Of a stretch of 64,000 bases of DNA, positions 43,388-59,151 are shown in pieces (within the stretch, counting starts at the first letter, position 1; each line of letters starts with the position of its first letter). The notes beneath the pieces were generated by a model. The model was given only the letters and a program-made list of their open reading frames with translations, searched no databases and was not told the origin of the DNA. The DNA comes from Xenorhabdus poinarii G6 (GTDB taxonomy: Bacteria; Pseudomonadota; Gammaproteobacteria; Enterobacterales; Enterobacteriaceae), in assembly GCF_000968175.1 (NCBI RefSeq), contig NZ_FO704551.1:2170001-2234000 (forward strand), given 5' to 3'. The translations under genes were made by a program, and so were the position numbers.

Positions 43388-44602
43388 TTAATTTAAATTA
43401 TGTATTAAGCAACTTCCTTCCCATAAAGTAAATACTGATATATTGAATAATATAAATTTAGCAATAAATCCGTACTTGTTTTTTTGTAAAAAACAGATAA
43501 TTCTAAATAGGAACAGTGTTGCTGGAAAAATAAAAATCGCTATAAACGTTAGCTTATTGTAACATAAAGTAATAATAAGAGGAACAGTTAGAGCAATCAT
43601 TGTTATTGACAAAACGTTTAAAATTATAGATAAAATATTTTTTTCTGATATACAAAAAGACTTTAATAATCCAAGCATCGGCATATGCAAAGAAATCATT
43701 GTATATAAAAGTTCTGATGTTTGAAATATAAGAATTACATGAAAAAACGCGACAAGCAAAATCACAACGGAGAAATTCAGTTCCATAGGATTTAATAGTA
43801 AAAGTATTAAAACTGAAACAATCAAAACAACAAATAAATTTATTCTTTGACTTATATATTTAAGACCAAAAAGATAGTACAATGATATCATTCCAATATT
43901 TAATTTAAATCCTTTATTTGGATTGATTATTTTTCGAAATTTTATTTTTTTGGAAAAAACAAATGGTGAGTTTCTTATCTTATAGATAAATATAGAAGCC
44001 ATCATGAATAAAAATATTTTTATAGTAATCAAGGATGTAACAGACATAACTAAAGGAATAAATAATGATAATAAAAAAACAATGAAACACGAATATGGGG
44101 AATAGAGGCAAAGCAATTGAAAAAACAAAAAATACATCATTAATAATAAAATCAATATTGTTTGCTTTAAAAAAACAACATTATCTACACCACCTTCATG
44201 ACCAAATAACATTGCAGAAAAAAATGGTAAAAAAATAGGTATATCAATAATGAATAGTACAGATAAATTCAATGAATTTACAATATTATTACTAATGGGT
44301 AGCGTCTCTAAAAATTTCTGATAACTCCCACCACTAATACCTTCTGCCTGGATGCTACAAATAATAATGAATAAAATTGATAATGAACACCATATAAATA
44401 GCACATGGTAAATATTCCGGTCATTAGTTAATGTTAAAATAGGTGTAGCTAACAGGCGCATCTGTGATAAAAATGGCATTGCCATAGGAGAAATAATTAG
44501 AAGAAAAAATAGCGTGATACCCATCCTTTTTTTAAGTAGTTCAGATGTGACATTAGAATAGTACCGGAGACGAAAAAGTAAAAGTGTAATATAAATTCTC
44601 AT
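43388..44602 (-). CDS. ABC-2-type transporter permease of the biosynthetic island
   Basis: A 404-residue, very hydrophobic protein with roughly ten or more membrane spans and few conserved charges, starting MRIYITLLLFRLRYYSN after AGGAT. No recognisable peptidase or ATPase domain is present, so it needs a separate ATPase; the only candidate nearby is the island ATPase at 50819-51424. Composition is strongly AT-rich, like that ATPase and unlike the three aromatic-acid genes between them. The likely role is export of the finished product or self-protection. Family assignment rests on topology more than on motifs. Confidence 0.65.
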   Translation of the reverse strand: MRIYITLLLFRLRYYSNVTSELLKKRMGITLFFLLIISPMAMPFLSQMRLLATPILTLTNDRNIYHVLFIWCSLSILFIIICSIQAEGISGGSYQKFLETLPISNNIVNSLNLSVLFIIDIPIFLPFFSAMLFGHEGGVDNVVFLKQTILILLLMMYFLFFQLLCLYSPYSCFIVFLLSLFIPLVMSVTSLITIKIFLFMMASIFIYKIRNSPFVFSKKIKFRKIINPNKGFKLNIGMISLYYLFGLKYISQRINLFVVLIVSVLILLLLNPMELNFSVVILLVAFFHVILIFQTSELLYTMISLHMPMLGLLKSFCISEKNILSIILNVLSITMIALTVPLIITLCYNKLTFIAIFIFPATLFLFRIICFLQKNKYGFIAKFILFNISVFTLWEGSCLIHNLN

Positions 44603-45156
44603 TTATTTATCCTATATTAGTATAATCTCCGAAAGAGACTGACAAAATAATGACCGAGCAACAGTCTTAAACGATATTTTTATAAAGCAATGTGATCATA
44701 CGATTCATCCCATTACTCGTTTTCTGACCATCACATTCGAGATAGTCAGCAGATTACACATACAGACAACCAGAACCACATTTTTTGAGTTTCCCATATA
44801 CAACGCGGTACGCATTCCGACCCAATCCACCAAAAATGGTTGACTTTGCATAATCCTTGAGTCACGGTTAATAGGGCTGCATCAACAATATGTTTCTATG
44901 GGGAATGCCTTACTGAACCAATTCCAGCTTAAATTCAGCAGAATATTGACATCAAGGACTGTTATCACAACTGTGCTGTAAGCCCAGTCGGTGACACCGT
45001 TTATTTTCTGTTGACAGCTCATAGGAATAAGGAGGCCACATTACGTTTCTTTAATCCAAAACGGACAACACAAAGTGAAGGTCTTTAATAAAAGTGGTAC
45101 GAACAAAGCCGCGCTGGACAAATTACATCAGAGAAAATTGGAAGGTGATCCTCAAT
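44603..45156. other. Gap between PhzE-like gene and ABC permease
   Basis: About 550 bp without an intact gene. Its right part carries the IS6-type transposase remnant described separately. The left part, 44603-44800, is AT-rich and may contain a promoter for the permease; I see no clear boxes. Confidence 0.45.
44940..45150 (+). pseudogene. Remnant of an IS6-family transposase
   Basis: From 44976 the plus strand reads AVSPVGDTVYFLLTAHRNKEATLRFF, then after a frameshift NGQHKVKVFNKSGTNKAALDKLHQ. This is the middle of the DDE catalytic core of IS6-type transposases (the region around the second Asp). Both ends are missing, no terminal repeats are visible, and several stops occur upstream, so it is inactive. 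Confidence 0.75.
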
Positions 45157-47124
45157 CTAAACCACGTCAATTTTTTCTGATGTTGACGTTTTTCTTAATG
45201 CATTTTGTATGAGCCACTGGTAAATAGTAAAAGCATCTTGTGTTAAAAATGACTCATTATGAAATTGAATTGAGGCCACATTACTTGACGATAATGCAAT
45301 AATTTCATTGGAAACAAGCCGTTCAAAATGGATAGTTTTGTTATACGTTGTACTATGCCAGTAAGACTTATGATGAATGGCAGAAAAACTATTATAGAAA
45401 CCGACACAATGATTTTTTCCCTGAATCGATACCTGATATTGACTGCCCTGACGATTTCTGGGTAAACGTATAATTGGGATGCCAAGCTCAGCGCAAATAA
45501 GTTGATGCCCCAGACAGGTTCCAATTAGCGGATATTGGAAACGCAATTGTTGCGCAATGACTTGTCGGGCAACCAGGACTTTTTCGAGTTTCGGGTTGGT
45601 AGGATCACCCGGTCCCGGACCGATGAACACGATGCTATTACTGGTCTGTGGCAATTTGCACGGACAATCATACCAAGGGACAATAGTGACAGTGCAGCCT
45701 GCTTTTCTTAACTGATAGGTGATCATTTCGGTGAAAGTATCTTCCATATCAATCAGGAAGATCTCATTGTGAGGCAGGATTATCCGATTTTGTTCCATCT
45801 TTCCCAGCCAGAATATGGATGCTTTTTCATTGCGTTGTGCCAGAAGTTGGTTTGCTCTTCTATACAACTCTACAGATATTTCCGTTTTTGGCGAGCCTGC
45901 AGATATTGTCGCAACATCAAAGAAAGAATGCATCAGTCCCTGTAACTTAGCGCGTGTTTCGTAGGCTTCATTATGTGGTACGGAGTTCCTGACGATAGTC
46001 GAACCTGCCGTTAAGCGGAAATGCCCCTGTGAGCTGATATCAGCTGTGCGGATCATGATAGCGGAATCCAGATAACGTTTTTCGCTGTTGTTACCGATAA
46101 TAGCAATAACACCGCTATAGTAGCCACGACCTCGCTGTTCATGGCGTGCAATGACTTTACAGGCATTTTCGATTGGACTGCCCGTGACTGCTGGAGAAAA
46201 CAACGATTGCCGGATAATTTCCTTCAGACCCCGGTCAGACTCACCATTAATATAGTATTCTGTATGGGCAATATACGACATCGTCTTGAGTTTCGGACCG
46301 GATACTTTGATATCACGTTGACAAATATTGCTCATCATTTTGAGCTCTTCATCAACTACCATGAATAACTCATCGCATTCTTTTTTATCCTGTAAAAAAT
46401 CATACAGTGCTCGTTCTAAATGCTGAGCATCAGGATATCTTAATGTACCGCTAATGGGATTCATCGAAACAGACTGCTGACTTACCTTAATATGTTGTTC
46501 GGGTGTACTGCCAATAAAATAACGACTACCTGTATAGCACATCCATGTCCAGTAAGCTCCACACTCAGAATACATCAATCGTTTAAATAAATTTAGCGCG
46601 TATTTGATACTAAAACCATCAATATCACCTTCTAGACTGCGTGAAATGACAAAATTACTGCCTTCTCCCGCGTTTATTTCCTGACGGATTACAGTGTCAA
46701 CAATCTCACTGTACTCTTGATCATCGAAATCGAAACGAAGATTCTTCGGTTTAATATCGTAATTGGCGATAACTGCCATAAATTGGTTGACAGGGTAATA
46801 TGCCAGCTTATCGATATACATTACGATCACCTGTTCGTGATCATCAATGCAAGCATAGCCCTTTTCCTTTAATTGATTAAAAGGTAACAAAACCAACTGC
46901 GACATCTGATGGGTGTTAGAGTCAGAAGTAAAGGTATCTAGTGTCAAATCGGCAAGGGAAGAGTATCGCTCAATATTCCCTTCAAGGAATAACACTGAGT
47001 CAGCCGTATCGACTTGTGGACGATATATACAGGCAAAAGGGCGATTGAGATTGTCAATATGAGCCGAAAGTTCATCGGTACTGTAGGTGGCAAGTACCGC
47101 TGCATTGGTAGATAATATCATCAT
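45157..47124 (-). CDS. PhzE-like 2-amino-2-desoxyisochorismate (ADIC) synthase
   Basis: A 655-residue fusion of an anthranilate-synthase-type chorismate-binding domain (1 to about 420) with a glutamine amidotransferase domain. PISGTLRYP and GSPIENACKVIARHEQRGRGYYSGVIA follow the PhzE pattern rather than TrpE. The amidotransferase triad is Cys537 in GTCLGHQ, His622 and Glu624 in FHNES. PhzE enzymes convert chorismate and glutamine to ADIC without releasing anthranilate. It begins five bases after the PhzD-like gene; ATGATG at 47119-47124 gives two possible starts. No other phenazine genes (phzA/B, F, G) are present, so phenazine is not the product. Confidence 0.88.
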   Translation of the reverse strand: MMILSTNAAVLATYSTDELSAHIDNLNRPFACIYRPQVDTADSVLFLEGNIERYSSLADLTLDTFTSDSNTHQMSQLVLLPFNQLKEKGYACIDDHEQVIVMYIDKLAYYPVNQFMAVIANYDIKPKNLRFDFDDQEYSEIVDTVIRQEINAGEGSNFVISRSLEGDIDGFSIKYALNLFKRLMYSECGAYWTWMCYTGSRYFIGSTPEQHIKVSQQSVSMNPISGTLRYPDAQHLERALYDFLQDKKECDELFMVVDEELKMMSNICQRDIKVSGPKLKTMSYIAHTEYYINGESDRGLKEIIRQSLFSPAVTGSPIENACKVIARHEQRGRGYYSGVIAIIGNNSEKRYLDSAIMIRTADISSQGHFRLTAGSTIVRNSVPHNEAYETRAKLQGLMHSFFDVATISAGSPKTEISVELYRRANQLLAQRNEKASIFWLGKMEQNRIILPHNEIFLIDMEDTFTEMITYQLRKAGCTVTIVPWYDCPCKLPQTSNSIVFIGPGPGDPTNPKLEKVLVARQVIAQQLRFQYPLIGTCLGHQLICAELGIPIIRLPRNRQGSQYQVSIQGKNHCVGFYNSFSAIHHKSYWHSTTYNKTIHFERLVSNEIIALSSSNVASIQFHNESFLTQDAFTIYQWLIQNALRKTSTSEKIDVV

Positions 47125-47129
47125 TTCCT

Positions 47130-47771
47130 CTAATGCATAGAATTATCCAAAGCGTTGATGAGCTGTTTTGTGTGTAGTACCAAGGAACAAGTCTCTGCTG
47201 CCAGCTCCAGCGCCAGACGATGTTTTTCTGCGGAAAAATCGGCAACAGCGTCGGCAACGAAAAAAGTTTCGATATCATTGGAATAAGCTTCCTGTGCTGT
47301 GCATAGGCAGCCTATATGGGCATAAACTCCGCATATAATGAGCTGATCGCGTTTAAAACCACGCAGCTTGGACAACAATGGAGAGTTGAAAAACGCGCTA
47401 TAACGCCACTTGGTTAATATATGTTCCCCTTCTTTTGGGGTCAGTTGTGGGATGATCTGTTTATGTTCATGGCTGGCGCTCATACCTGATCCCCATATAC
47501 TTTGCAGCAATCCTCGTTGCAAGGGGGTCATATCACCTGGTTGGGCAGAATAAAACACAGGAATTCGCAGATATCGGGCGATATTCAACAAGTGGCATGT
47601 ATTATCAATAAGATGTACTACAGGTGACGCATCGGCCGTAAAGAAATTGAGGAAATAGTGCTGCATATCATGGATGAGTAACGCTGTACGGGTGCAAACA
47701 GGCTGCCAGTTTACAACTGATGCTGGCAATTGATATTCCGTAGGTAATTTATAGGGTGGTATCTTTTCCAT
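47130..47771 (-). CDS. PhzD-like isochorismatase (ADIC hydrolase)
   Basis: A 213-residue isochorismatase starting MEKIPPYKLPTEYQLP, with Asp35 in LLIHDMQHYF and Lys121 in ILTKWRYSAFF, the positions of the PhzD catalytic pair, and GVYAHIGCL. YSNDIETFFVADAVADFS and SAQPGDMTPLQRGLL are closer to PhzD than to EntB, and there is no aryl carrier domain. It should cleave pyruvate from ADIC to give trans-2,3-dihydro-3-hydroxyanthranilate. The ATG at 47771 follows AAGGGG; a longer upstream frame overlaps the dehydrogenase gene and is spurious. Confidence 0.88.
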   Translation of the reverse strand: MEKIPPYKLPTEYQLPASVVNWQPVCTRTALLIHDMQHYFLNFFTADASPVVHLIDNTCHLLNIARYLRIPVFYSAQPGDMTPLQRGLLQSIWGSGMSASHEHKQIIPQLTPKEGEHILTKWRYSAFFNSPLLSKLRGFKRDQLIICGVYAHIGCLCTAQEAYSNDIETFFVADAVADFSAEKHRLALELAAETCSLVLHTKQLINALDNSMH

Positions 47772-47790
47772 TCTGTTTTCCCCTTCAAGA

Positions 47791-48576
47791 TTAACAATTA
47801 CCGAGGGCGGCTCCGCCATCGACCAGTAACGTTGAGAGAGTTGTTTGTCCCGACTCTTCACACAGGTAGAAACAAACTGCTGAGGCAATCTCTTTCGCTG
47901 TTGCGATTTTATTGAGCGGAATACCGATACGGAATTGCAGTGGGTTACCATTGAGGGTATTTTGCTGGTCACGCTCATTGTTCCACATACCGCGTAGCAT
48001 GGAGGTATCAGTGGAACCAGGCGCAACAACGTTGCAACGGACACCATATGGTGCAACTTCTAGCCCCAGCGCATAGGTAAATGCCTGCGCCGCCGCTTTT
48101 GATGCGCAATACGCTGCCATAGTAGCCCGCGGTACGCGCGCTGCATTAGAGGCAATGGTAACAATGCTACCCTTCCTCTGTTTTGTCATCAAATTAGCCG
48201 CATGGCGGCTGACATTGAATACTCCGGTTGTATTGACTGCGAAGGTTTTTTCCCAATCCTTGGAGCTAGTCTCAGCAACAGTAGAGTAACAAAGTACGCC
48301 TGCAGCATTGACCAGATAGCCCACCGGCCCTAACTGCCGCGTCAGTACGGCAAAAACTTCTGCAACACAGCGATCGTCAGTTACATCAACGGTAAAACCC
48401 ATGATGGGTTGTGTATGCACGTTATTTAGCTCGGCAACTAGGGATTTCAGCGTTTGTAGTTTGTTATCCAATAACGCTAATGAAATCCCCTCTTTCGCCA
48501 GTAACCGGGCTACTTCTTCACCAATACCCCCGCAAGCGCCAGTAATGACGGCAATGTAACATTTATTAAAGGTCAT
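47791..48576 (-). CDS. EntA-like short-chain dehydrogenase (predicted dihydro-3-hydroxyanthranilate dehydrogenase)
   Basis: A 261-residue short-chain dehydrogenase with TGACGGIG at 12-19 and the tetrad Asn115, Ser143, Tyr156, Lys160. The C-terminal half (GSTDTSMLRGMW, FRIGIPLNKIATAKEIA, LLVDGGAALG) is the EntA subfamily. EntA itself oxidises dihydro-dihydroxybenzoate; next to PhzE- and PhzD-like genes, with no isochorismate synthase, the expected substrate is dihydro-3-hydroxyanthranilate and the product 3-hydroxyanthranilate. It is first in a tight three-gene unit (19- and 5-base gaps). Confidence 0.85.
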   Translation of the reverse strand: MTFNKCYIAVITGACGGIGEEVARLLAKEGISLALLDNKLQTLKSLVAELNNVHTQPIMGFTVDVTDDRCVAEVFAVLTRQLGPVGYLVNAAGVLCYSTVAETSSKDWEKTFAVNTTGVFNVSRHAANLMTKQRKGSIVTIASNAARVPRATMAAYCASKAAAQAFTYALGLEVAPYGVRCNVVAPGSTDTSMLRGMWNNERDQQNTLNGNPLQFRIGIPLNKIATAKEIASAVCFYLCEESGQTTLSTLLVDGGAALGNC

Positions 48577-49018
48577 TTTTCTGTAATCCTTTCAGTAGTG
48601 TAATTAAGATTTGAGTCTGCGCCATGTTTAAGCTTAAATCGCAGGTTATTTGTTTGATTTCTAATGCCTTAGGTTGATAATGGGAACAAAAGTAATTGAC
48701 AACTGAGTATAGAGTAACCTCAAGATGGAGTCCGGCAACGCAGACATTACACTTGCTACCTGTAGAAAATCAGCAATCTCCATCATCATGTCGTTGAGGT
48801 TATGGTGTTTATTTCCGGCTGGCGTTTGGTTCGTGTTACCGTACATAGGATCTCATATTCATATAACCAGTGTTACAGTAACTTCCATTAAGTCAATCAG
48901 CACACCAACCCATGAATATGTTGGAATCCGAAACACACAATAAATGTCAAATGTCCCGGAATGCACGGGCGGTAATTGTCAATATAGTTGGTACTATTGA
49001 TCATTTAAGCCACCTATT
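48577..49018. other. Junction between the aromatic-acid genes and the hydrolase gene
   Basis: About 440 bp without a recognised gene. A 61-codon minus-strand frame (48661-48846, MYGNTNQTPAGNKHH...) is open but has a poor ribosome-binding site. TTGACT on the minus strand near 48899 is a possible -35 box. Base composition resembles the aromatic-acid genes rather than the AT-rich hydrolase gene, placing the composition boundary close to 49000. Confidence 0.4.
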
Positions 49019-50818
49019 TCATTTATTAATGTAATCCAAGTGCATAATAAATTTATCTATCTCGATATTACATCGCTCCCAGCTATAACTTTGTTTAAAT
49101 ATGTGATTATCATTCTCTAATGTATATAATTTACGTTTAACACTTGCATCTGTGAAATATTTTGAATGCTCCCAAGGAGTCACCTCATCTTCTTTTGAAT
49201 GAATTATCAATATATCGGTGTCTATCTTTGAAAATAACTCACTTATTATATTTTCATTATTTATTAAAGAATGTTTTAAAACATTAAAATCATAAACCGG
49301 GTTAATAATAATAGCTGGAATTGATGAGTTAGTATTATGCAAAAAATTTAATATAGATAAACCGCCTAGACTACCAGAGCAAAGTACAACTTTATTGAAG
49401 CCAATTTCATTTAACTCCGTAATTACACTACTCAGATAATCATCTTCATTAATTTCTTTATTAAGTTCAAAACTATTTACAGAACTAAAAGAACTAGGAA
49501 GATTGAGTATCATACCTTGATAATTTTTTGATTTATTTTTGGTAAAGAGACGACAAATACATTCTTGAAACATATTTGGCTGCATGCCACTCATTGCTAA
49601 CTTATGGACGCCCGGATAATAAACAATAATAATATTTTCTTTTTTATAATTTAGATCAAAAATATCTTTTTTTACAGATGACCAATTGAGTCTAGGAATA
49701 GAAGGATATTCTGTTTTATTTTGATATAATACTTGTACACTCTTACTAATACGACTGTACTTCAATATTGATAGTTTATTTTTTAATAATCCATAAAAAA
49801 TACAATCACCGTTTTTTAGAACGGATAATTTATATCCTACATCTTCAAAAATCACTCTTGTGATGAATTTATTACCATAGTTTGTTACTTCAAAAATTTT
49901 TCTGATTGATTTATTTGAGACATGTTCTATTGCAATATAATATATTGAAGAGTGACAATTCGATGAAACAAAGTTAATAACTACATGCTGTGGTAAAGAT
50001 ACAGGAGTTATACGCTCACTTATAGAGTTATAATGGCATAAATAGACATTATTACTTCTCTCACAGACAAATAAAACATCGTTATTTTTCCATCTTGATA
50101 AATTAATATCTTTTATACTTAAATGAGAGACTGCTTCAATACTTATATTTTTAATTGAATCAAAGTTACATTTATTTATAACAATAAGATAGTTATTAAT
50201 TTCACCAATGAGATCTTTTGGTTGTACATATACATATATATATAATTCAGTAGGAACTATGCTAAACTTGGTTCTAGAATTAAAATTCATATTACCTATT
50301 CTATATCTGAAAATCTCTTTCCCATCATTTACTATCAAAGTGAAATCATTTTCATCATCACCAGATAATAAATAGACCTTTTTATCTTTTAAGATAAATG
50401 ACTTAACATTTTTTTGAAAAACATAATATTCACCAAAAGAATTTGATAGGGTCTTAAACAACGTTTCTCCAGATAATAACCATAATGTATTATTGTAATC
50501 AAATTGCATTGATTTTATGTTTTTTAAATTAATTGAACCACATATTTTATTATTTTCGAGAGAAAAAATCTTAACATCATCAGTTGTACTTAAGGCGTAA
50601 TTTTCTTCCGAAAATGAAATTATGTTTTGATAAAAATTTTCTTCTAAATGCAAAGAAACAAGTTCCTCTTCAAAAAGTTTATACCAATAATGATATACAT
50701 TATTACCATCACTAGCAATCCAAGATACAATCACATCTTCTTTATTATCATTTTGCAATGAGGTAATAAATGGTGTTTCAAAAATATTTTGTTTTCCAAC
50801 AAATGAAAAGTAATTCAC
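49019..50818 (-). CDS. Propeller-like plus S9-type (prolyl-oligopeptidase-like) alpha/beta hydrolase
   Basis: The 599-residue protein has about 370 residues of repeated beta-strand segments, consistent with a propeller, then an alpha/beta hydrolase domain starting near IIIVYYPGVHKL. The predicted triad is Ser483 in CSGSLGGLS, Asp544 in HSKEDEVTPW and His572 in ENDNHIF. The elbow reads SGSLGG, where S9 peptidases normally have GGSxGG. No signal peptide is seen, so it acts in the cytoplasm. The start is a GTG immediately after the ATPase stop codon, with AAGGGTG upstream. Leader or product processing is the natural inference. Confidence 0.7.
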   Translation of the reverse strand: MNYFSFVGKQNIFETPFITSLQNDNKEDVIVSWIASDGNNVYHYWYKLFEEELVSLHLEENFYQNIISFSEENYALSTTDDVKIFSLENNKICGSINLKNIKSMQFDYNNTLWLLSGETLFKTLSNSFGEYYVFQKNVKSFILKDKKVYLLSGDDENDFTLIVNDGKEIFRYRIGNMNFNSRTKFSIVPTELYIYVYVQPKDLIGEINNYLIVINKCNFDSIKNISIEAVSHLSIKDINLSRWKNNDVLFVCERSNNVYLCHYNSISERITPVSLPQHVVINFVSSNCHSSIYYIAIEHVSNKSIRKIFEVTNYGNKFITRVIFEDVGYKLSVLKNGDCIFYGLLKNKLSILKYSRISKSVQVLYQNKTEYPSIPRLNWSSVKKDIFDLNYKKENIIIVYYPGVHKLAMSGMQPNMFQECICRLFTKNKSKNYQGMILNLPSSFSSVNSFELNKEINEDDYLSSVITELNEIGFNKVVLCSGSLGGLSILNFLHNTNSSIPAIIINPVYDFNVLKHSLINNENIISELFSKIDTDILIIHSKEDEVTPWEHSKYFTDASVKRKLYTLENDNHIFKQSYSWERCNIEIDKFIMHLDYINK

Positions 50819-51424
50819 TTAATCACCCTTAAATATATTGATGTTAATAACATAAGGTTTTAGATATTTTCTAACTTCAAAATTATGACATGTCATTATA
50901 ACCAATCCAGATAGACTAAAATTTTTTATATTTTCGATAAAATACAAAAGTGAATCATTATCAAGGCCATTAGTTGGCTCATCAAAAATAAGTATTTTTA
51001 CATTTGCTATCATTGCAGAAATTAACATGAATTTTTTTGCAGTCCCAAGAGACATATCACGAAAATGAGTATACATATAATTATGCAAATTAAAACCGTC
51101 GACTAAATCAAATTGTTTTTCTATTTCTACCTTTCTTATAGAACAAATAAGATCTAAAAATTCTTTTCCAGTAATGAATTCATATATACAGGGACTATCA
51201 GGAGCATAAGCTATAAAATTTTTTCTCCAACAACACCCTCCATTTATAAACACATCTCCATAATCAGGTTGAATAGCACCAGCTATAATTCCTAACAATG
51301 TCGATTTACCTGAACCATTTTCTCCTTCCAGAAAATAGATACCATTATTAGGAAAAGTAAAGCAAGCATCCTTAATTATAAACCTTCCTGAATATTTTTT
51401 ACATATATTGGATAATTTAATCAC
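50819..51424 (-). CDS. ABC transporter ATPase subunit of the biosynthetic island
   Basis: A compact ATPase of about 201 residues: Walker A GENGSGKST, signature MSLGTAKK (variant of LSGGQ), Walker B ILIFDEPTNGLD and a CHN switch. I place the start at the GTG at 51424 (VIKLSNICKKYSG), seven bases after AGG; an ATG at 51442 is an alternative adding six residues. It has no membrane domain, so it presumably pairs with the permease at 43388-44602. Its stop abuts the hydrolase start, coupling the two. Confidence 0.85.
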   Translation of the reverse strand: MIKLSNICKKYSGRFIIKDACFTFPNNGIYFLEGENGSGKSTLLGIIAGAIQPDYGDVFINGGCCWRKNFIAYAPDSPCIYEFITGKEFLDLICSIRKVEIEKQFDLVDGFNLHNYMYTHFRDMSLGTAKKFMLISAMIANVKILIFDEPTNGLDNDSLLYFIENIKNFSLSGLVIMTCHNFEVRKYLKPYVININIFKGD

Positions 51425-51854
51425 TATGACACCTATTTTCATTTAAAGTAAATATTAATCTTGTTACTTCTGGAGATTATAATTCTAAAAAGAGAGAGAG
51501 GTTACCCTTTAACCCGTTCTCCAAACGAAGAATTCGGATAAAGACATGCTGGGTGATTCCTTTAAGTTCGAATTTTTCGCAATCAATGTTTCCATATTTA
51601 CTTCACTTATTTATAAAATTATCTTTTATATCTCATTAAACAATGATTAATATTGATGCTTTATATTTAAAACCAACCACATTATAAGTTAAGCGCTCTT
51701 GCATTCAAATAACAGATTAACTTGTATAATCGTAACACTTATTGTTATTTATTTTCCGTTTAACAAAGCTACCGCCATTGAGTTATTTATTATGGGAACA
51801 ACTCATTTATTTTATTGTACTTTTCATTGATGAATCACATTATTATTCATATAG
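51425..51854. other. Gap between the DegT-like gene and the ABC ATPase, with one candidate peptide gene
   Basis: About 430 bp of mostly very AT-rich DNA. The only feature is a 28-codon minus-strand frame at 51509-51595. A less AT-rich block at 51500-51570 surrounds it. I see no terminator. Confidence 0.45.
51509..51595 (-). CDS. Candidate 28-aa peptide (unconfirmed)
   Basis: ATG at 51595 is preceded by GAAG at six bases and opens a frame beginning METLIAKNSNLKESPS and ending SLSEFFVWRTG. It lies inside the island on the same strand as all other genes. It has no similarity to the ACLSCS peptide. It could be a second small product or chance. Confidence 0.25.
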   Translation of the reverse strand: METLIAKNSNLKESPSMSLSEFFVWRTG

Positions 51855-53060
51855 CTAAATAACAGAATATTTCATTAATTTTTTAATATTGAAATCACTT
51901 TTTATCGATCTGTAAATATCTAGTGTACCATCATAATTCCCTAATAAAGCTCGGTGATGTATCCAAACTCCCCTATTTGCAATATATTCAGCAATTGGAC
52001 ACGAGTCTACAAATTTTTGCTTATTTCGTGTTGCGCAAGGATATAACCAATAATTATCAACATAGTAAATTGCTTTATAAGCACGGAATGCTGGAATTCC
52101 CTCAGCGAATAGACAAGCTACAAAATAACTACGATCAATATAGGCAATCCTTTGATTAAGTGTAAACATATAGTGTGGATGAGATGTTACGATTTTAGTA
52201 TTGTATTCTTGAAGAGTCACTTCTGGTAATGTTTTTAACATTTCCTTTAAATTTGCTGCGTTACGCTCTCGAATTTTAGTTTGTTCTTTGAGTCTGTTTA
52301 GTTGAATACGCAAAACTGCCGCAGAAAATTCACTTAGTCTTGCATTGGTTGCGATTATAGTATGTTGATATTCTTTGTCTTTTGCATGGCGTCCACAATT
52401 ACTATAAAGAAAAACAAGATCACGTAATTCTTTAGTAGGACATAAAACGATACCGCCTTCTCCTGCTGTCATTAAATTAAGATTATAGAAACTAAAGCAT
52501 GCCAATGTTCCCCAATCACCTATCTTTTTCCCTTCTTCTCCACAGGCTCCATGTGCATGAGCGGTATCTTGAATAATAATAGTATCATGTTTATTAACTA
52601 TTTTTATTATATTGTTCATATCACATAAATGACCAGCCATATGAACCGGTATGATTGCTTTTGTTCGAGGAGTTATATTTTTTTCAATTAGATTATGATC
52701 AATACAATAAGTACTTTTTAAAACATTTATAGATATTGGTATTGCACCAACTCGTTGAACTGCCATGCTAGTCGAAATAAATGTAAAAGCTGGAACTATA
52801 ACCTCATCTTCAGGTTTTACACCAGCAGCTAATAATGCTAATTCTAATGCTACCGTCCCACTATTGACAGTAATGGCATAACCATTATGGTATTGACTAA
52901 ATTCTTGTTCAAAAAAATTATTTTCTTTTCCTTGATTTCTCCACCAATATCCTTGATGTAAACTCCTCAATAATGCTTGATCTTCACTCTCATTAAAACA
53001 AGGCCATTTAGGAAAGTTCGTGAGACGAATCGCTTTACCACCATTGATTGCCAATTTCAT
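51855..53060 (-). CDS. DegT/AHBA-synthase-like protein without the PLP lysine
   Basis: A 401-residue member of the DegT/DnrJ/EryC1/StrS aminotransferase-like family, start MKLAINGGKAIRLTNFPKWP at the ATG at 53060. It keeps the phosphate-binding VNSGTVALELAL, the pyridine-binding Asp165 in QDTAHAHGA and the MTAGEGG block. The closest style is 3-amino-5-hydroxybenzoate synthase. However the residue that should be the Schiff-base lysine, in FSFYNLNLMTAGEGG, is Asn195 (codon AAT). Either it is a pseudoenzyme or it does PLP/PMP chemistry that needs no internal aldimine, as in the known His-for-Lys dehydratase ColD. Partner and substrate are unknown. Confidence 0.8.
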   Translation of the reverse strand: MKLAINGGKAIRLTNFPKWPCFNESEDQALLRSLHQGYWWRNQGKENNFFEQEFSQYHNGYAITVNSGTVALELALLAAGVKPEDEVIVPAFTFISTSMAVQRVGAIPISINVLKSTYCIDHNLIEKNITPRTKAIIPVHMAGHLCDMNNIIKIVNKHDTIIIQDTAHAHGACGEEGKKIGDWGTLACFSFYNLNLMTAGEGGIVLCPTKELRDLVFLYSNCGRHAKDKEYQHTIIATNARLSEFSAAVLRIQLNRLKEQTKIRERNAANLKEMLKTLPEVTLQEYNTKIVTSHPHYMFTLNQRIAYIDRSYFVACLFAEGIPAFRAYKAIYYVDNYWLYPCATRNKQKFVDSCPIAEYIANRGVWIHHRALLGNYDGTLDIYRSIKSDFNIKKLMKYSVI

Positions 53061-53205
53061 GTTGATCACCAATTTAATTTCAATAGTTTATTAATTTGTT
53101 TAAGTCATTATTTTTTTGAGATTGAAATAAAAAATCATATTTTATATTTCCAATTAATTTAGATTATATTAAATTCATTCAGTATATAGGTTTTTTATTA
53201 AAAAA

Positions 53206-54069
53206 TTATTCTAGTTTAGATCCAAACTTACGAGGACAGGTGAGACGACAATATGCAGGAGAATTAAACAGTATTTCTCTAGCACGGTGTAAACTCTCTA
53301 AAATATCATTAATATCGAAATTAGAATCCCTTTCTAAAACAATACCATGAGGTACAATTCTAGAACATATATACTCAAGTAATTCCCATACTGGTTTTTC
53401 TATTTTATGACCATGACTATCTATTAATAATTCATCATGAGTATATCCTCCGGCTATGTGAACTTCTACGATTGAATTTAAATCTATTTTTTCTAAAAAG
53501 TCATAAGGATCATAACCATGATTTCTAGAATTAATATAAAGATTATTTACATCAATCAGTAACCCACATCCACTACCCTTAATAATATCACATATAAATT
53601 CACATTCACTATATTCATTATCAGGAAAGTCAAAATAATATGAAATATTCTCTATTAAAAATGGTATATTACTATATGAACAGATTTCTTTTATTTTTGA
53701 TATCACTCTTTTTTTATTATATAAGTTTCTTCTAATAGGCATCAATTGATCTATATCAAATGCATTTATCTTTGTATATGCCAAATGATCACTGAACCAT
53801 AATGGGGATAACTTATTTATGACATTGACTGTTGATTTTAAATAATTTAAATCAATACCTTCATCAGCACCTATCGATAATTTTAATCCATGCAGTACAC
53901 AATATTTTTTAGTTAAAATTTTTTGCAAAGATAAAGGTATATCTTTAGATAAAAAAAACAGGTCAGTGATAATTTCTACAAAATCAAAACAATCAATATT
54001 TTTTAACAAATCATCACCTATTTCGGGACGGTAATTAATTCCAACACCATATGGGAGATTATCTAACAT
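53206..54069 (-). CDS. DUF692 / MNIO-family multinuclear non-heme iron oxidative enzyme
   Basis: A 287-residue TIM-barrel protein with all DUF692 signature blocks: His60 in YCVLHGLKLSIG, Asp94-His95 in WFSDHLAYT, Glu140 in FLIENISYY, Asp173 in LLIDVNNLYIN, His204 in VEVHIAGGYT, Asp217/His219 in LIDSHGH and Glu246 in VLERDSN. In characterised systems (MbnB, TglH and relatives) such proteins bind two or three irons and rewrite cysteine residues at the end of a ribosomal peptide, working with a partner protein. AGGAG lies six bases before the ATG. It follows its probable partner gene directly. Confidence 0.92.
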   Translation of the reverse strand: MLDNLPYGVGINYRPEIGDDLLKNIDCFDFVEIITDLFFLSKDIPLSLQKILTKKYCVLHGLKLSIGADEGIDLNYLKSTVNVINKLSPLWFSDHLAYTKINAFDIDQLMPIRRNLYNKKRVISKIKEICSYSNIPFLIENISYYFDFPDNEYSECEFICDIIKGSGCGLLIDVNNLYINSRNHGYDPYDFLEKIDLNSIVEVHIAGGYTHDELLIDSHGHKIEKPVWELLEYICSRIVPHGIVLERDSNFDINDILESLHRAREILFNSPAYCRLTCPRKFGSKLE

Positions 54070-54077
54070 ATTAACTC

Positions 54078-54965
54078 CTATTTATATTTTTTTAATTTAC
54101 TCTTGGAAAACCATCTAATCACGCCTAGTGATTCTAATTTAATAAATATTGAGTCCACTTTTAAAAAATCGTTATCAGACAACTCTGATGAAAATATTTT
54201 ATCACAAATTTTTTTATACGTTGATAGAGAATAGGATTCTTTGATTAATTTCATTAATAACGTACTTACCTTTATAGTTCTAACTTTCTTGTCATGCCAA
54301 GATATATAAGTTAATATATTGGTTTTTTTATTTTCAAAAAAATCTTTATCTGATAATTCTATTTCTATATTATCATTTTTTTTTCTTAGTTTTTTTATCA
54401 TTGTAACTATATCAAAATCATAAGTGTTATAAACTGGCTTTACCATTACCACAGGATAATTATCATCTCTTTTATAACCTGAAATTGATAATGAATTATA
54501 ATTCATTTTCCTTGCGTTATTTAACACCTCAAGGATACTAATTTCATAACGAATAATTTGATATATAAAAAAACCATTGACATAAGAAAGAAACGAACCT
54601 TTATTTATTATATATTTCATAAAATCTAGTGCGCATAAATCAGCATCATTCCACCTAAGGTTAGGTAAAGTACTACGAAAATCATTCCATTCTACATGTA
54701 ATATATTTTCACTAATAATTTTTATAGATAAAGAAAAGAACAAAAGCACATGTTTATATAATCTTTTATCTAAAATCTCACTTAATATTCTAATTCTTTT
54801 TCTTTGACTTAAAACCACACCGTTAATAATTTCTTTAATTTCCTCAGGTATATTTAAATTAGGATCATCAAATTCTTTGGTGTGCATATAATAATCCAAT
54901 GAATGTGTATTGGTAACCAAGTAACCAATCAAATATTGAATTATTGATTCGTTTTCTTTTTTCAC
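54078..54965 (-). CDS. Probable MNIO partner protein with peptide-recognition-like C-terminus
   Basis: A 295-residue, Lys/Ile/Asn-rich protein directly before the MNIO gene (eight-base gap). I do not find a named family, but its position and length match the MbnC/TglI/DUF2063-like partners. The last 75 residues (VSTLLMKLIKES...FLKVDSIFIKLESLGVIRWF) have the helix-helix-wing pattern of RiPP recognition elements. The start is a GTG at 54965 after GGGAGG, two bases after the cupin stop, so it is coupled to that gene. Confidence 0.65.
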   Translation of the reverse strand: MKKENESIIQYLIGYLVTNTHSLDYYMHTKEFDDPNLNIPEEIKEIINGVVLSQRKRIRILSEILDKRLYKHVLLFFSLSIKIISENILHVEWNDFRSTLPNLRWNDADLCALDFMKYIINKGSFLSYVNGFFIYQIIRYEISILEVLNNARKMNYNSLSISGYKRDDNYPVVMVKPVYNTYDFDIVTMIKKLRKKNDNIEIELSDKDFFENKKTNILTYISWHDKKVRTIKVSTLLMKLIKESYSLSTYKKICDKIFSSELSDNDFLKVDSIFIKLESLGVIRWFSKSKLKKYK

Positions 54966-54967
54966 AT

Positions 54968-55762
54968 TTACCTCCCATACAATTTAGCATTACTTTCCCT
55001 AATTCTAATTAAAACATCACCAGAAAGAACAGCTTCCAATTGAGATGAATATCTTTTAGATTTACTTATATCAAGACGAATCATTTTTTTATATGCTTGT
55101 AATTTAATTGATGGGGTTCCTAGGGAAAATATTTTCTCCAATATATTAAATTGAAAATTTTGATTTAACTTATCAGTAAGAAGTAAACATGAAGTTAAAT
55201 TTCTCAGTACTACAATAGAATAATCAATATTATCACGGGGATCGTTTTCCCCTAACCATATAGTATCACCATTTTTATCTTTTCTCAGATCTGAATCACA
55301 AAAAACATGTAAAGTGATACTATATTCGGACAAATCTGGATTACCTAATGCATGGATGCATGGCGGTATTAAATAACCTGTTTTCCCTTCAATCGCAATT
55401 ATTTCATTAATAACGGATATTCCTTCATTTATTTTTTCATAAATTTTTATTTTTATTTTATTGTGCATAACCCCACTTACGCTCCATGTATTATGCTGAT
55501 GAGGTTGGTTTTCACTCTTAGGATTCCATAAAAATATACTCATTCTCCATTTATTATTGTAATCAACATAAAGTGGCTTAATTTCGTTAATTCTTAAGGT
55601 GTTTTTAATATTTTCAATGAGTTCATTGATACAATCATTCAAAAAAATTTCGTCTGTAATTGCTACAGACATAATGTTTCTAATATTATATATCATATCA
55701 GGCATACTTTGTGTTGATGTAATTTCGTGGTTTATTTTTTTTGCAAAATCAATAACATTCAT
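54968..55762 (-). CDS. Cysteine/thiol-dioxygenase-like cupin
   Basis: A 264-residue protein whose centre is a cupin with three metal histidines: His88 and His90 in NQPHQHNTWSVSGV and His137 in PPCIHALGNPD. The PHxHxTWxVxGV motif is that of cysteine dioxygenase and 3-mercaptopropionate dioxygenase relatives (three-His, no Glu). Free cysteine, a peptide cysteine, or a small thiol are all possible substrates; 3-hydroxyanthranilate dioxygenase is also a cupin but has a different motif. GGGGGAG precedes the ATG very closely. It is coupled to the partner gene downstream. Confidence 0.75.
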   Translation of the reverse strand: MNVIDFAKKINHEITSTQSMPDMIYNIRNIMSVAITDEIFLNDCINELIENIKNTLRINEIKPLYVDYNNKWRMSIFLWNPKSENQPHQHNTWSVSGVMHNKIKIKIYEKINEGISVINEIIAIEGKTGYLIPPCIHALGNPDLSEYSITLHVFCDSDLRKDKNGDTIWLGENDPRDNIDYSIVVLRNLTSCLLLTDKLNQNFQFNILEKIFSLGTPSIKLQAYKKMIRLDISKSKRYSSQLEAVLSGDVLIRIRESNAKLYGR

Positions 55763-55878
55763 AACTCCCCCATAAAGTGTGAGTTCATAACGAAAGGTTA
55801 TACGACTGAATCTTGTTAATTAGATTTTATGAAGTTTATTTCTTATTTTTAAAATACCGACTAACCATTAAATATTAT

Positions 55879-57465
55879 TTAACAATCATAAGAAAATTCA
55901 GTTAGAGTTTTACTTCCTAAAATATTACGTTGTAATTTCCCTGAGCTGTTCCTCGGTAGAATCTCCATAAATTCAATTTTCTCTAAATGTTTATATGTAA
56001 AATCAATCCATCTATTCTTTACTGAATTTAAAATTCTTTCCTCTAATGAGAGAGATATTATAACCCCTTCTTTACATACAACACATGCTTTTAATATGAT
56101 TACATTATTTTCATTTGTTTCTCCAATGACTGCACACTCTAACACTTCATCATTTTTTAATATCTCATTTTCTATTTCATAAGGAGATACCCATTCGCCA
56201 CAACCTTTTTTAATCATATCATCTGAACGACCGAAATATGTAACATAATCATTAGAAATACTAAACATGTCATTACTAATATGCCAACCATTATTAAAAG
56301 ATTGCTCGCTTCTTTTTGCATCGTTTAAATATTCACAAGCAACACTTGGACCACGAATGCAAAGTCGACCAACTTTTCCTTCACTAACTTCATTTCCTTT
56401 ATTATCAATAATTTTAATTTTGAAACCATTTAAGCATTTACCTACTGTCTGTGGTCTTATATTATCTAGGGTATTAGATATAAAAATATGCCCCACTTCT
56501 GTAGAACCAAAACCATCTAAAAGTGGGGTTCCTATCTCATTATTCCATTTTTCTAATAGAATAGATGATAAAACCTCTCCGGCAGAAGTAGATATACGCA
56601 GAGATTTTAATTCACCCACATTCTTATTATTAAGTAATTCAGAGATCATTCTTGGTGTTCCAAGAAATATTGTTGGTTTTAAATCCTTGCTTAGCTTTAT
56701 GATTTTTTCATGAGTTGTTTTTTCTCTAAAAATAATGCATGACGCACCATATATGAAGCTAAATAATAATGATCCGCCTAACGCATAACCAAAAGTTAGT
56801 TTAGGGACGGCTAGAACTCTATCTGCTGAATTCATATATAAAACATTTTCAGAAAAAGCATAAGCACAGTGCAAAATATCTCGGTGACGCCTAGGTATTA
56901 CTTTATTTTTTCCTGTTGTTCCAGAACTAAGTAAAGCATAGGCATAACTATCAGTACTTGTATAGCTGATCAATAAATCACTTGATTGGTTTTCTATTGC
57001 TATTTCTAAATCAGATGGATTTAAATGAAAATCTCCGATAAAAATAGTTTCAATGTTATTGGTTATCCCAGAAAGTAATGCTCTTTTTTTCTCTATTTCA
57101 TGATCAATAACTAATATATCAGCATTTAGTTCTTTTATTATGTCATTTATTTCTACCGATTCACTAAGAGGATTACTTAAGATAGCCATAGCACCGCATG
57201 CTATAACTGCAAAAAAACTTATTACAAATGCTGGGGTATCAGGAATGGCTAATATAACTCTAGTTTGATTTTTCACACCTATTGACTTAAAATAGTTTGA
57301 CGTTTTTGAGATTTTTTCTGATAGCTCTTGGTAAGTAAAATCTTTCCCATCATATGATATAGCTACATTTTCACCTCTACCTTCTCTGATATGGCGAAAA
57401 ATAAGAAAATCAGTTAAGTTTAAAGAATCATTTTTTAATAAGTCTTCTAAATATAGATTTTTCAT
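55879..57465 (-). CDS. Benzoate-CoA-ligase-type AMP-forming aryl-acid ligase
   Basis: A 528-residue ANL-superfamily enzyme. P-loop SSGTTGKNK at about 180-188, DGFGSTEVGHIFISN at 317-331 (the benzoate-CoA ligase block), Asp399 in HISNDMF where TGD is usual, hinge GRSDDMIKKGCGEWVSP at 412-428 and catalytic Lys510 in PRNSSGKLQRN. It should adenylate an aryl carboxylate; 3-hydroxyanthranilate from this same island is the obvious candidate. No aryl carrier protein is encoded, so CoA or direct transfer to an amine is implied. The ATG at 57465 follows GGGAG by 12 bases; a TTG at 57477 directly abuts it. Confidence 0.85.
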   Translation of the reverse strand: MKNLYLEDLLKNDSLNLTDFLIFRHIREGRGENVAISYDGKDFTYQELSEKISKTSNYFKSIGVKNQTRVILAIPDTPAFVISFFAVIACGAMAILSNPLSESVEINDIIKELNADILVIDHEIEKKRALLSGITNNIETIFIGDFHLNPSDLEIAIENQSSDLLISYTSTDSYAYALLSSGTTGKNKVIPRRHRDILHCAYAFSENVLYMNSADRVLAVPKLTFGYALGGSLLFSFIYGASCIIFREKTTHEKIIKLSKDLKPTIFLGTPRMISELLNNKNVGELKSLRISTSAGEVLSSILLEKWNNEIGTPLLDGFGSTEVGHIFISNTLDNIRPQTVGKCLNGFKIKIIDNKGNEVSEGKVGRLCIRGPSVACEYLNDAKRSEQSFNNGWHISNDMFSISNDYVTYFGRSDDMIKKGCGEWVSPYEIENEILKNDEVLECAVIGETNENNVIILKACVVCKEGVIISLSLEERILNSVKNRWIDFTYKHLEKIEFMEILPRNSSGKLQRNILGSKTLTEFSYDC

Positions 57466-57525
57466 AAAAATTAACAACTCCCATAATCATTAAATATAAT
57501 AACTCATCAATTAACTTAATTTTAT

Positions 57526-57560
57526 TGAAAAAGCAGAGGGTAACATAATTATCACCCTCT
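57526..57560 (-). terminator. Hairpin between precursor gene and the modification genes
   Basis: On the minus strand AGAGGGT and ACCCTCT (57560-57554 and 57541-57535) form a seven-pair stem followed by GCTTTTTC. It lies ten bases after the peptide stop codon. A leaky terminator here would give much more peptide message than enzyme message, common in RiPP operons. Confidence 0.7.
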
Positions 57561-57570
57561 ATTAATTATC

Positions 57571-57696
57571 TTAAGAGCAACTTAAACAGGCCAAACCAGC
57601 TTCCTCAATTTGTTCTAGAATCTCAACTAATTCTATGGATTCAATATCTCTAATAGCTTGATTTTGCACATCTTGAACATCAGCTTTTCCGTTCAT
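57571..57696 (-). CDS. Putative RiPP precursor peptide (41 aa) with C-terminal ACLSCS
   Basis: The frame starts MNGKADVQDVQNQAIRDIES and ends LEQIEEAGLACLSCS. Residues 5-32 form an acidic, amphipathic helical leader; after Ala33-Gly34 comes a short core with Cys37 and Cys40. Leader-like helix plus Cys-rich C-terminus is the layout of MNIO substrates. TATGAGG stands five bases before the ATG, a good ribosome-binding site. It is the first gene of the island, transcribed in the same direction as all the others, and too short for standard ORF tables. The cut after AG or GL is inferred. Confidence 0.8.
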   Translation of the reverse strand: MNGKADVQDVQNQAIRDIESIELVEILEQIEEAGLACLSCS

Positions 57697-58232: not shown

Positions 58233-59151
58233 GGTCGTGTCCCTTAATTATATAACCGCTTGTAAAAGAGTCGAATACAGCCTAATTTCACCATGGATAA
58301 ATAGTTTCGGGCGGTTTTTTCATAGCGGGTTGCAATACGCCGATTTCCTTTCAGAAAACCGAAACAGCGTTCGACCACATTCCGGCCACGATAAGCCTGT
58401 TTATCAAATTGCGTACGACCATCAGTACTGCCTTTTTCATTGATTTTATACGGAATAATGCCCTTTATCCTCAATTTACGCAGATAACCGCGCAGTTTTC
58501 CGCCCGAATAGCCTTTATCTGCCAGTACCGCTTTACCGCGCCGTTTCATGAAACCATTTTTGCGTTGGACGCCAATGCCATCAAGCAACGGGATGGCCGA
58601 TTGACTTTCATGGGCTTGCCCAGCGGTCACTATCAGGTTGAGGGGAAATCCCTTTCGGTCGGTTGCCAGGTGGATTTTGGTGCCATAACCACCGCGTGAG
58701 CGACCCAGCGCATGATCGTCAGCGATATCGGGATGTTTTTTTTCGCGCCTGCGGCATCTTTACTCGCGCGAATATTGCTGCCATCCAGGCAAATTTCAGC
58801 CCAGTCAATCAACCCTTTTTCATCCAGAATGGACAGTAAACGATTAAATATCTTGTTGATAATGCCTGATTTTGACCAACGATTAAATCGGTTATAGACC
58901 GTTTTCCAAGGCCCATAGCGTTCCGGTAAGTCGCGCCACGGTGCCCCTGAACATAGCACCCAGAACATCCCATTTATCACACGGCGGTGTTCAACATAGG
59001 GACGTCCTGCCCGTTCTGAATGAACCAGGGGCAAACAAGATTCTATCAATATCCATGCGTCATCAGGAATGTCGTAGCGTGCCATCATCTTTTCCTATAT
59101 TGAAAACCGTTTAGATGATAATACTACCGATTTACATTAAGGGACACGGCC
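58233..59151 (-). mobile_element. IS5-family (IS427-like) insertion sequence, apparently complete
   Basis: The 919-bp element is bounded by 16-bp terminal inverted repeats: GGTCGTGTCCCTTAAT at 58233-58248 and its complement with one mismatch at 59136-59151. It holds one transposase read through a frameshift site. It sits just upstream of the biosynthetic island. Confidence 0.9.
58244..59088 (-). CDS. IS427-type transposase, two frames joined by programmed -1 frameshift
   Basis: Frame A (58633-59088) begins MMARYDIPDDAWILIESCLP and contains the first catalytic Asp in CLDGSNIRASKDAAGAKK. Frame B (58244-58630) carries KGFP/LADKGYSGG with the second Asp and RNVVERCFGFLKGNRR with the Glu. A run of eight A residues (minus strand, 58743-58736) just after GCG lets the ribosome slip back one base, giving AKKKHPDIADDHALGRSRGG and a continuous DDE protein. 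All catalytic residues are present, so it may be active. Confidence 0.88.

What the first reader, a model, noticed from the sequence alone, without database searches (positions are those of the whole stretch)
43388..57696. Undescribed biosynthetic island combining an MNIO peptide-modification module with a 3-hydroxyanthranilate pathway
Seen directly: twelve genes in one direction, starting with a 41-codon Cys-ended peptide, then aryl-acid ligase, thiol-dioxygenase-like cupin, probable MNIO partner, DUF692/MNIO, DegT-like protein, ABC ATPase, S9-type hydrolase, EntA-, PhzD- and PhzE-like enzymes and a permease. Known: MNIOs rewrite Cys residues of ribosomal peptides; PhzE/PhzD/EntA-like trios make 3-hydroxyanthranilate in benzoxazole-type pathways. 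Inference: the product is a small peptide whose modified cysteine end carries or is condensed with 3-hydroxyanthranilate (amide, benzoxazole or benzothiazole-like), plausibly a metal-binding or antibacterial compound. I know no described family with this combination.
Basis: partly seen in the sequence, partly recalled or inferred. Interest (0 to 1): 0.95.

Follow-up and report, generated by a model that had tools for sequence, protein, structure and literature searches.

The report
Peptide-plus-hydroxyanthranilate biosynthetic island in Xenorhabdus
An insect-killing symbiont carries a rare gene island that appears to build a tiny cysteine-rich ribosomal peptide and decorate it with the aromatic acid 3-hydroxyanthranilate, using an aromatic-acid ligase with a strangely conserved cysteine-ended tail; the product is unknown and could be a new chemical class.

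Summary
The twelve-gene island is real. The same genes stand in the same order in 3 more of 30 genus genomes (Xenorhabdus by inference), partly broken there; this MNIO clade, ligase and cupin ring in the same 4 of 30. A distant 70% GC MAG keeps peptide (same CLSCS end), ligase, cupin, partner, MNIO, ABC, hydrolase and permease, but has a tryptophan-dioxygenase-like domain and a kynurenine-monooxygenase-like enzyme instead of PhzE/PhzD/EntA. Two unrelated supply routes thus seem to converge on 3-hydroxyanthranilate beside one conserved peptide/MNIO/ligase core: the best evidence that acid and peptide meet in one product. The partner's model resembles TglI. The ligase, nearest anthranilate-CoA ligase among solved structures, belongs to a subfamily (53 of 120 listed homologues) with a C-terminal tail like TLTEFSYDC and an inserted A8-loop Cys. 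Attachment site, bond and function are inferred; the benzoxazole cyclase is absent; DegT here has lost its PLP lysine. A new variant of MNIO RiPP pathway, of high interest; not categorically new until a product is seen.

The parts
57571..57696 (-). 41-aa precursor peptide MNGKADVQDVQNQAIRDIESIELVEILEQIEEAGLACLSCS; leader plus short CLSCS core (leader/core split inferred)
   Evidence: ORF; orthologues 76-88% identical in 3 relatives and CLSCS-ended homologue in the MAG; pN/pS 0.18-0.28; GAGG upstream
57534..57561 (-). 12-bp stem hairpin just after the peptide stop (partial terminator or processing element, inferred)
   Evidence: a hairpin follows the peptide in all 5 loci; one T-A to C-G compensated pair in G303; an unrelated strong hairpin in the MAG
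55879..57465 (-). tailed aryl-acid AMP ligase (anthranilate/benzoate-CoA-ligase type)
   Evidence: PF00501; best PDB sequence match anthranilate-CoA ligase 4wv3, E 3e-72
55882..55908 (-). conserved C-terminal tail TLTEFSYDC of the ligase (residues 520-528)
   Evidence: 53 of 120 listed homologues carry such a tail, 52 of the 53 ending exactly in Cys; mean identity to the window 82% in the tail, 43% in the body; pLDDT under 50 at 523-528
56200..56202 (-). inserted Cys422 in the A8 loop (KKGCGEWVSP) of the ligase; 'A8' is recalled ANL nomenclature
   Evidence: 54 of 54 tail-bearing rows (window included), 6 of 67 tail-less rows
54968..55762 (-). cupin, cysteine/thiol-dioxygenase-like, invariant H88, H90, H137
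   Evidence: 9-row alignment; its profile matches a PF05995 protein
54078..54965 (-). MNIO partner protein, TglI-like (PME-type 2), C-terminal RRE-like domain
53206..54069 (-). MNIO (DUF692) oxidase
   Evidence: PF05114 243 bits; matches 3bww, the TglH chain 8hci_D and MbnB chains
51855..53060 (-). DegT / AHBA-synthase-like PLP protein, PLP lysine replaced by Asn in this strain
   Evidence: 1b9h E 5e-87 with Asn aligned to the Lys of NGKLMTAGEGG (that this Lys binds PLP is recalled); Lys in the three other copies
50819..51442 (-). ABC transporter ATPase
   Evidence: PF00005
49019..50818 (-). propeller + alpha/beta-hydrolase-like protein (S9-like), candidate leader peptidase
   Evidence: weak family matches only; SGSLGG, HSKEDEV and DNH motifs read by eye; 20% identical homologue in the MAG, E 3e-44
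47791..48576 (-). EntA-like SDR, proposed DHHA dehydrogenase giving 3-HAA
   Evidence: TIGR04316 302.2 bits over 300; 8sbv/2fwm E 7e-49
47130..47771 (-). PhzD-like isochorismatase (ADIC to DHHA, inferred)
   Evidence: best PDB matches 3r77 2e-58 and PhzD 1nf9 9e-58
45157..47124 (-). PhzE-like ADIC synthase (inferred)
   Evidence: only PDB match at E up to 1e-30 is 3r74, E 2.7e-123, listed as anthranilate/PABA synthase component I; that 3r74 is PhzE is recalled
43388..44602 (-). membrane permease, no Pfam family
   Evidence: ORF; no Pfam match; 23% identical homologue at the same place in the MAG, E 4e-25

Best explanation
The island is a RiPP pathway whose product joins peptide-derived and 3-hydroxyanthranilate-derived atoms. 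Shown by sequence or predicted fold: a small precursor with a conserved CLSCS end; an MNIO with a TglI-like partner; a PhzE/PhzD/EntA-like trio; an anthranilate-ligase-type enzyme; a hydrolase-like protein; an ABC ATPase and permease. Inferred: the partner grips the leader and the MNIO oxidises one or both Cys of CLSCS; the trio turns chorismate via ADIC and DHHA into 3-HAA; the ligase adenylates 3-HAA and passes it to the peptide rather than to CoA for catabolism (most simply to the N-terminal amine or a Cys/Ser of the core after leader removal); the cupin oxidises a thiol; the S9-like hydrolase cuts off the leader; ABC plus permease export the small product. Likeliest role (a guess from product type and host): a secreted metal-binding or antibacterial metabolite.
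Against: No product, no assay. No acyltransferase family was found among the island proteins, so the ligase would have to transfer the aryl group itself. The MAG TDO-like domain is far below the NCBIfam TDO cut-off (102 against 390.7 bits) and its KMO-like protein passes no cut-off among the 25 of 51 NCBIfam rows shown, so the convergence rests on family likeness; and it is one MAG. GC differs between modules (28% peptide-to-MNIO, 44% Phz trio), so the trio could be a later neighbour. Three of four copies have broken genes and the window's DegT is altered.
Confidence: 0.6

Rival explanations
1. Pearlin-like scaffold logic: the peptide is only a carrier; the MNIO remodels its C-terminal part and the hydrolase releases a small amino-acid-like thiol compound, to which 3-HAA is then ligated. 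The product holds one or two peptide residues at most.
For: Partner is closest in fold to TglI, whose enzyme acts on a C-terminal Cys (PMC9016710 abstract start in the listing); the conserved core is about five residues; a thiol-dioxygenase-like cupin fits a small free thiol.
Against: No PEARL-type ligase family among the island proteins scanned; Ser, not Cys, is the last residue and all of CLSCS is conserved.
Confidence: 0.2
2. Copper-binding captophorin/bufferin-type peptide; the 3-HAA genes make an independent metabolite that happens to be co-inherited.
For: The MNIO's best NCBIfam rows are BufB and HvfB; different GC of the two modules.
Against: Both are far below cut-off (206 of 310; 187 of 360 bits); by eye the peptide has no signal sequence and only two Cys; the partner is no DUF2063 protein by Pfam; the ligase stays with the core in the MAG while the acid supply changes.
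Confidence: 0.1
3. The island is decaying and mostly silent: a relic of a functional pathway elsewhere.
For: Ligase frameshifted or interrupted in two copies, ABC frameshifted in one of these, partner, PhzE and hydrolase broken in the third; window DegT lacks its PLP lysine; rare outside the genus.
Against: The orthologues' matches cover nearly the whole of each window protein; the peptide shows purifying selection. Some breaks may be assembly errors.
Confidence: 0.1

Closest known systems
MNIO RiPP clusters with PME-type-2 partners (pearlin TglHI, aminopyruvatide, biphenomycin type)
   Same: MNIO plus TglI-like partner, short precursor without evident signal (PMC12452194 sections 17 and 18 read)
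   Different: a term search of that paper's main text finds no Xenorhabdus, Photorhabdus, ligase, AMP-binding, anthranil or cysteine dioxygenase; precursor ends CLSCS
Chorismate/DHHA pathway to 3-HAA (limazepine Lim4-6; presumed for tilivalline)
   Same: PhzE-, PhzD- and EntA-like trio (PMC5958127 passages)
   Different: there 3-HAA feeds NRPS-built pyrrolobenzodiazepines; no NRPS is among the island proteins
NatL2/BomJ and ClxA/PfxC benzoxazole ligases
   Same: aminohydroxybenzoic acids (3-HAA for NatL2) joined by an adenylating ligase without CoA; [quoted passage not shown]
   Different: NatL2 is PaaK-type; this ligase is of benzoate/anthranilate-CoA-ligase type with a different tail that AF2 leaves unplaced; no cyclising amidohydrolase in the island
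Anthranilate-CoA ligase (PDB 4wv3)
   Same: best solved-structure sequence match, E 3e-72
   Different: a gap at Cys422 in the alignment; its last residues fall outside the aligned part
Bufferins / captophorins (BufB, HvfB)
   Same: MNIO family
   Different: scores below both cut-offs, TglI-like rather than DUF2063-by-Pfam partner, only two Cys in the precursor

Membership tests
MNIO-modified RiPP pathway | MNIO (PF05114) enzyme | tested here: met
   243 bits over cut-off 25
MNIO-modified RiPP pathway | conserved small precursor gene beside it | tested here: met
MNIO-modified RiPP pathway | partner protein of known MNIO-partner fold | tested here: met
MNIO-modified RiPP pathway | modified peptide product | not testable with these tools
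   needs expression and MS
Bufferin/captophorin (BufB/HvfB) | NCBIfam equivalog cut-off | tested here: not met
   206.3 of 310 and 186.6 of 360 bits
Methanobactin, aminopyruvatide, chryseobasin MNIOs | NCBIfam equivalog cut-offs | tested here: not met
   MbnB 50 of 325, ApyH 99 of 400, ChrH 35 of 600 bits
Pearlin (TglHI) | PEARL ligase in the cluster | tested here: not met
   no such family among the 11 island proteins scanned
Chorismate/DHHA 3-HAA pathway | PhzE-, PhzD- and DHB-dehydrogenase-like genes together | tested here: met
Chorismate/DHHA 3-HAA pathway | 3-HAA actually formed | not testable with these tools
   needs enzyme assay
Benzoxazole (NatL2/NatAM type) pathway | amidohydrolase cyclase in the cluster | tested here: not met
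   no amidohydrolase among the 11 island proteins scanned
Benzoxazole (NatL2/NatAM type) pathway | PaaK-type ligase | tested here: not met
   best rows are benzoate/anthranilate-CoA ligases
Aryl-CoA ligase | transfer to CoA | not testable with these tools
   needs assay; Cys422 insertion and tail are unusual
AHBA synthase (DegT) | PLP-binding lysine | tested here: not met
   Asn in the window, Lys in three orthologues
Cysteine dioxygenase (PF05995) | Pfam match | tested here: inconclusive
   none at E 0.01, but its profile finds a PF05995 protein at E 4.7e-8; three invariant His

The most novel reading that the evidence does not exclude
The ligase founds a subfamily of self-carrying aryl ligases: its invariant C-terminal Cys (SYDC-COOH), on a conserved tail that AF2 leaves unplaced, and the inserted A8-loop Cys422 replace coenzyme A, so that 3-hydroxyanthranilate is moved as a thioester on the enzyme's own tail and handed to the RiPP. 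That would be a carrier-protein-free and CoA-free way to arylate a ribosomal peptide, used by dozens of uncharacterised pathways.
Probability: 0.15. Interest if true: 0.92.

Novelty: new variant of a known kind. Interest (0 to 1): 0.8.

Why it matters
No paper among those listed in my searches describes a RiPP carrying a dedicated aromatic acid put on by a ligase of this type. A pathway whose peptide/MNIO/ligase core stays while the acid supply is swapped predicts the building block and makes the product directly testable. The tailed ligase subfamily poses a clear, general enzymological question.

Tried and rejected
Benzoxazole end-product: no amidohydrolase in the island. DegT as part of 3-HAA supply: no DegT match in the 20.8 kb of L003, and the window copy lacks the lysine; its role stays unexplained. 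Extra small genes in the gaps: no conserved ORF stood out; matches come in several frames and on both strands, as plain DNA similarity gives. Same chromosomal site: none of the ten flanking proteins tried was found in the fetched flanks of the other copies, except IS fragments.

More loci: cupin in 1 of 295 family genomes, the window's own; in 5 of 369 class genomes, the own one and four weak CDO-like matches; in 0 of 12 genomes of the genus taken as Photorhabdus by its LuxE score, an empty answer that the tool says shows nothing by itself; in 2 of 150 of the MAG's family, the MAG itself and one weak match. Tailed ligase elsewhere: 31 of 398 phylum genomes and 17 of 385 genomes of another class matched the ligase profile, but only three candidates a genome were scored, and apart from the window's own all listed matches end at or before model position 520; 8 of the 17 have a stop inside the matched stretch. 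Of these matches the 40 that became loci (L020 the own one) were scanned: only L020 has the tail or the A8 Cys motif. Plasmids: the 8 listed of 284 matching records align only to residue 518 of P0028; cupin, two weak Streptomyces matches. Viral contigs: none. PDB profile searches with cupin (0 matches) and partner (one chance match, E 0.46) led nowhere. AF2 gave no confident pose for the tail, so a NatL2-like lock is neither supported nor excluded.

Literature: listings (30 of 58 papers; 0 found; 20 of 64; 10 of 1,098; 12 of 57; 15 of 34; 15 of 147), titles and abstract starts seen, show no paper that joins an MNIO or RiPP with 3-HAA, or tells of a Xenorhabdus MNIO pathway; only open-licence PMC is held and the lists are capped.
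Full report
Observation. The window is 2170001-2234000 of a single-contig 3.66 Mb genome that holds one MNIO. The named relatives of its proteins are mostly Xenorhabdus; that the genome itself is Xenorhabdus is inferred from its genus mates (G318 has a contig of the same length as a named X. thuongxuanensis contig). Between 57696 and 43388, all on the minus strand, lie a 41-aa peptide, AMP ligase, cupin, partner, MNIO, DegT, ABC ATPase, propeller/hydrolase-like protein, EntA-like SDR, PhzD, PhzE and a permease.

Distribution. The cupin rings in 4 of 30 genus genomes, the ligase in 4 of 30, MNIO over 230 bits in 4 of 30, the same four; five genomes (G303 among them) carry other, weaker MNIOs. 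All four have the twelve genes in order. Beyond the genus the set is rare in the samples searched. The protein searches found 5 partners and 8 cupins and, for the ligase, a top group P0014-P0026 with Xenorhabdus, the MAG, Methylobacter, Ideonella, Acinetobacter oleivorans and Photorhabdus heterorhabditis; for the last two the longest-contig lengths equal those of the cupin hits, so both genes very probably share a contig.

The MAG. L003 (70% GC) has the peptide (41% over 29 residues), ligase 48%, cupin 39%, partner 24%, MNIO 52%, ABC 34%, hydrolase 20% and permease 23% identical, in the island's order, and within its 20.8 kb no DegT, EntA, PhzD or PhzE match at E 1e-3. Instead one 599-codon frame starts with a TDO-like domain (PF03301, over cut-off) and ends with the cupin, and a flavin monooxygenase stands between MNIO and ABC whose best PDB match is kynurenine 3-monooxygenase over residues 3-415. 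On another contig of the same genome lie TDO, kynureninase and arylformamidase, each over cut-off. Trp to 3-HAA is thus complete on paper. In pyrrolobenzodiazepines the chorismate/DHHA and kynurenine routes replace each other for 3-HAA (PMC5958127 passages). Against this: the cluster's TDO-like domain is divergent (102 bits against 390.7) and may do something else; it is a single MAG.

The ligase. Its nearest solved relative by sequence is anthranilate-CoA ligase 4wv3. Of the 120 listed homologues 53 carry a C-terminal [FYW][SAG][YF]xC tail, 52 of them ending exactly there: 12 of 13 in the top group (the thirteenth, P0018, is the interrupted copy), 38 of 38 in the next, 3 of 69 below. 296 proteins passed the threshold, of 8000 candidates scored, and only 120 were shown. 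Mean identity to the window is 82% in the tail and 43% in the body over 53 rows; Cys422 is present in 54 of 54 tailed rows (window included) and 6 of 67 others, namely P0018 and P0065, P0068-P0071. The ML tree of 74 rows needs three label changes, which may be one gain and two losses; the root is not fixed. The ligase model is good (mean pLDDT 88.7) but its last six residues are under 50. NatL2 shows that a C-terminal extension can turn such ligases away from CoA (PMC7204872 passages); whether this tail carries the aryl group, binds peptide or partner, or is itself modified is unknown. The second tier's genomic context was not seen, so the tail need not be tied to MNIO chemistry.

State of the copies. 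In the window DegT has Asn where RifK and the three orthologues have Lys, and a different C-terminus. G318 has a frameshift/stops in the ligase start, G302 an interruption in the ligase and a frameshift in the ABC gene, G303 breaks in partner, PhzE and hydrolase. Some may be sequencing errors. GC is 28% for peptide-to-MNIO, 44% for the Phz trio, 41.5% for the window, as if the two modules had different histories.

Mechanism. Shown: gene content, order, families, predicted folds, conservation. Inferred: leader binding by the partner, MNIO oxidation of the CLSCS cysteines, 3-HAA synthesis, its adenylation, transfer to the peptide, leader cleavage, export. The joint product is put at 0.6; the site of attachment is not known. 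Benzoxazole closure is not favoured, as the amidohydrolase of the nataxazole and closoxazole pathways (passages) is absent.

Novelty. The MNIO landscape paper (abstract, sections 17 and 18, term search) and the captophorin paper (abstract, section 6) do not mention such a pathway in what I read; the listings show none. Hence: a new variant of MNIO RiPP pathway.

Noticed in passing
P0014-P0067, e.g. window 55882-55908: A benzoate/anthranilate-ligase subfamily, of unknown context outside the island and many of its members unnamed, shares a C-terminal tail ending in Cys plus an inserted Cys in the A8 loop.
   Followed up: partly
P0065, P0068-P0071: Five related ligases keep the inserted A8 Cys but lack the tail.
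   Followed up: partly
L055/L059 (G297) and L054/L058 (G311): Two neighbouring MNIO matches within 2 kb in two other genus genomes, of a lower-scoring MNIO type.
   Followed up: no
L003:9017-10816: TDO-like domain and cupin read as one 599-codon frame in the MAG.
   Followed up: partly
window 58244-59088: IS4/5-type transposase in two frames beside the peptide end of the island; similar fragments next to the permease end of the G318 copy.
   Followed up: partly
window 36674-38263: 529-aa protein with only a sub-threshold Big_1 match.
   Followed up: no
window 51855-53060: AHBA-synthase-like protein with Asn in place of the PLP lysine and an altered C-terminus, while three orthologues keep the lysine.
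   Followed up: partly
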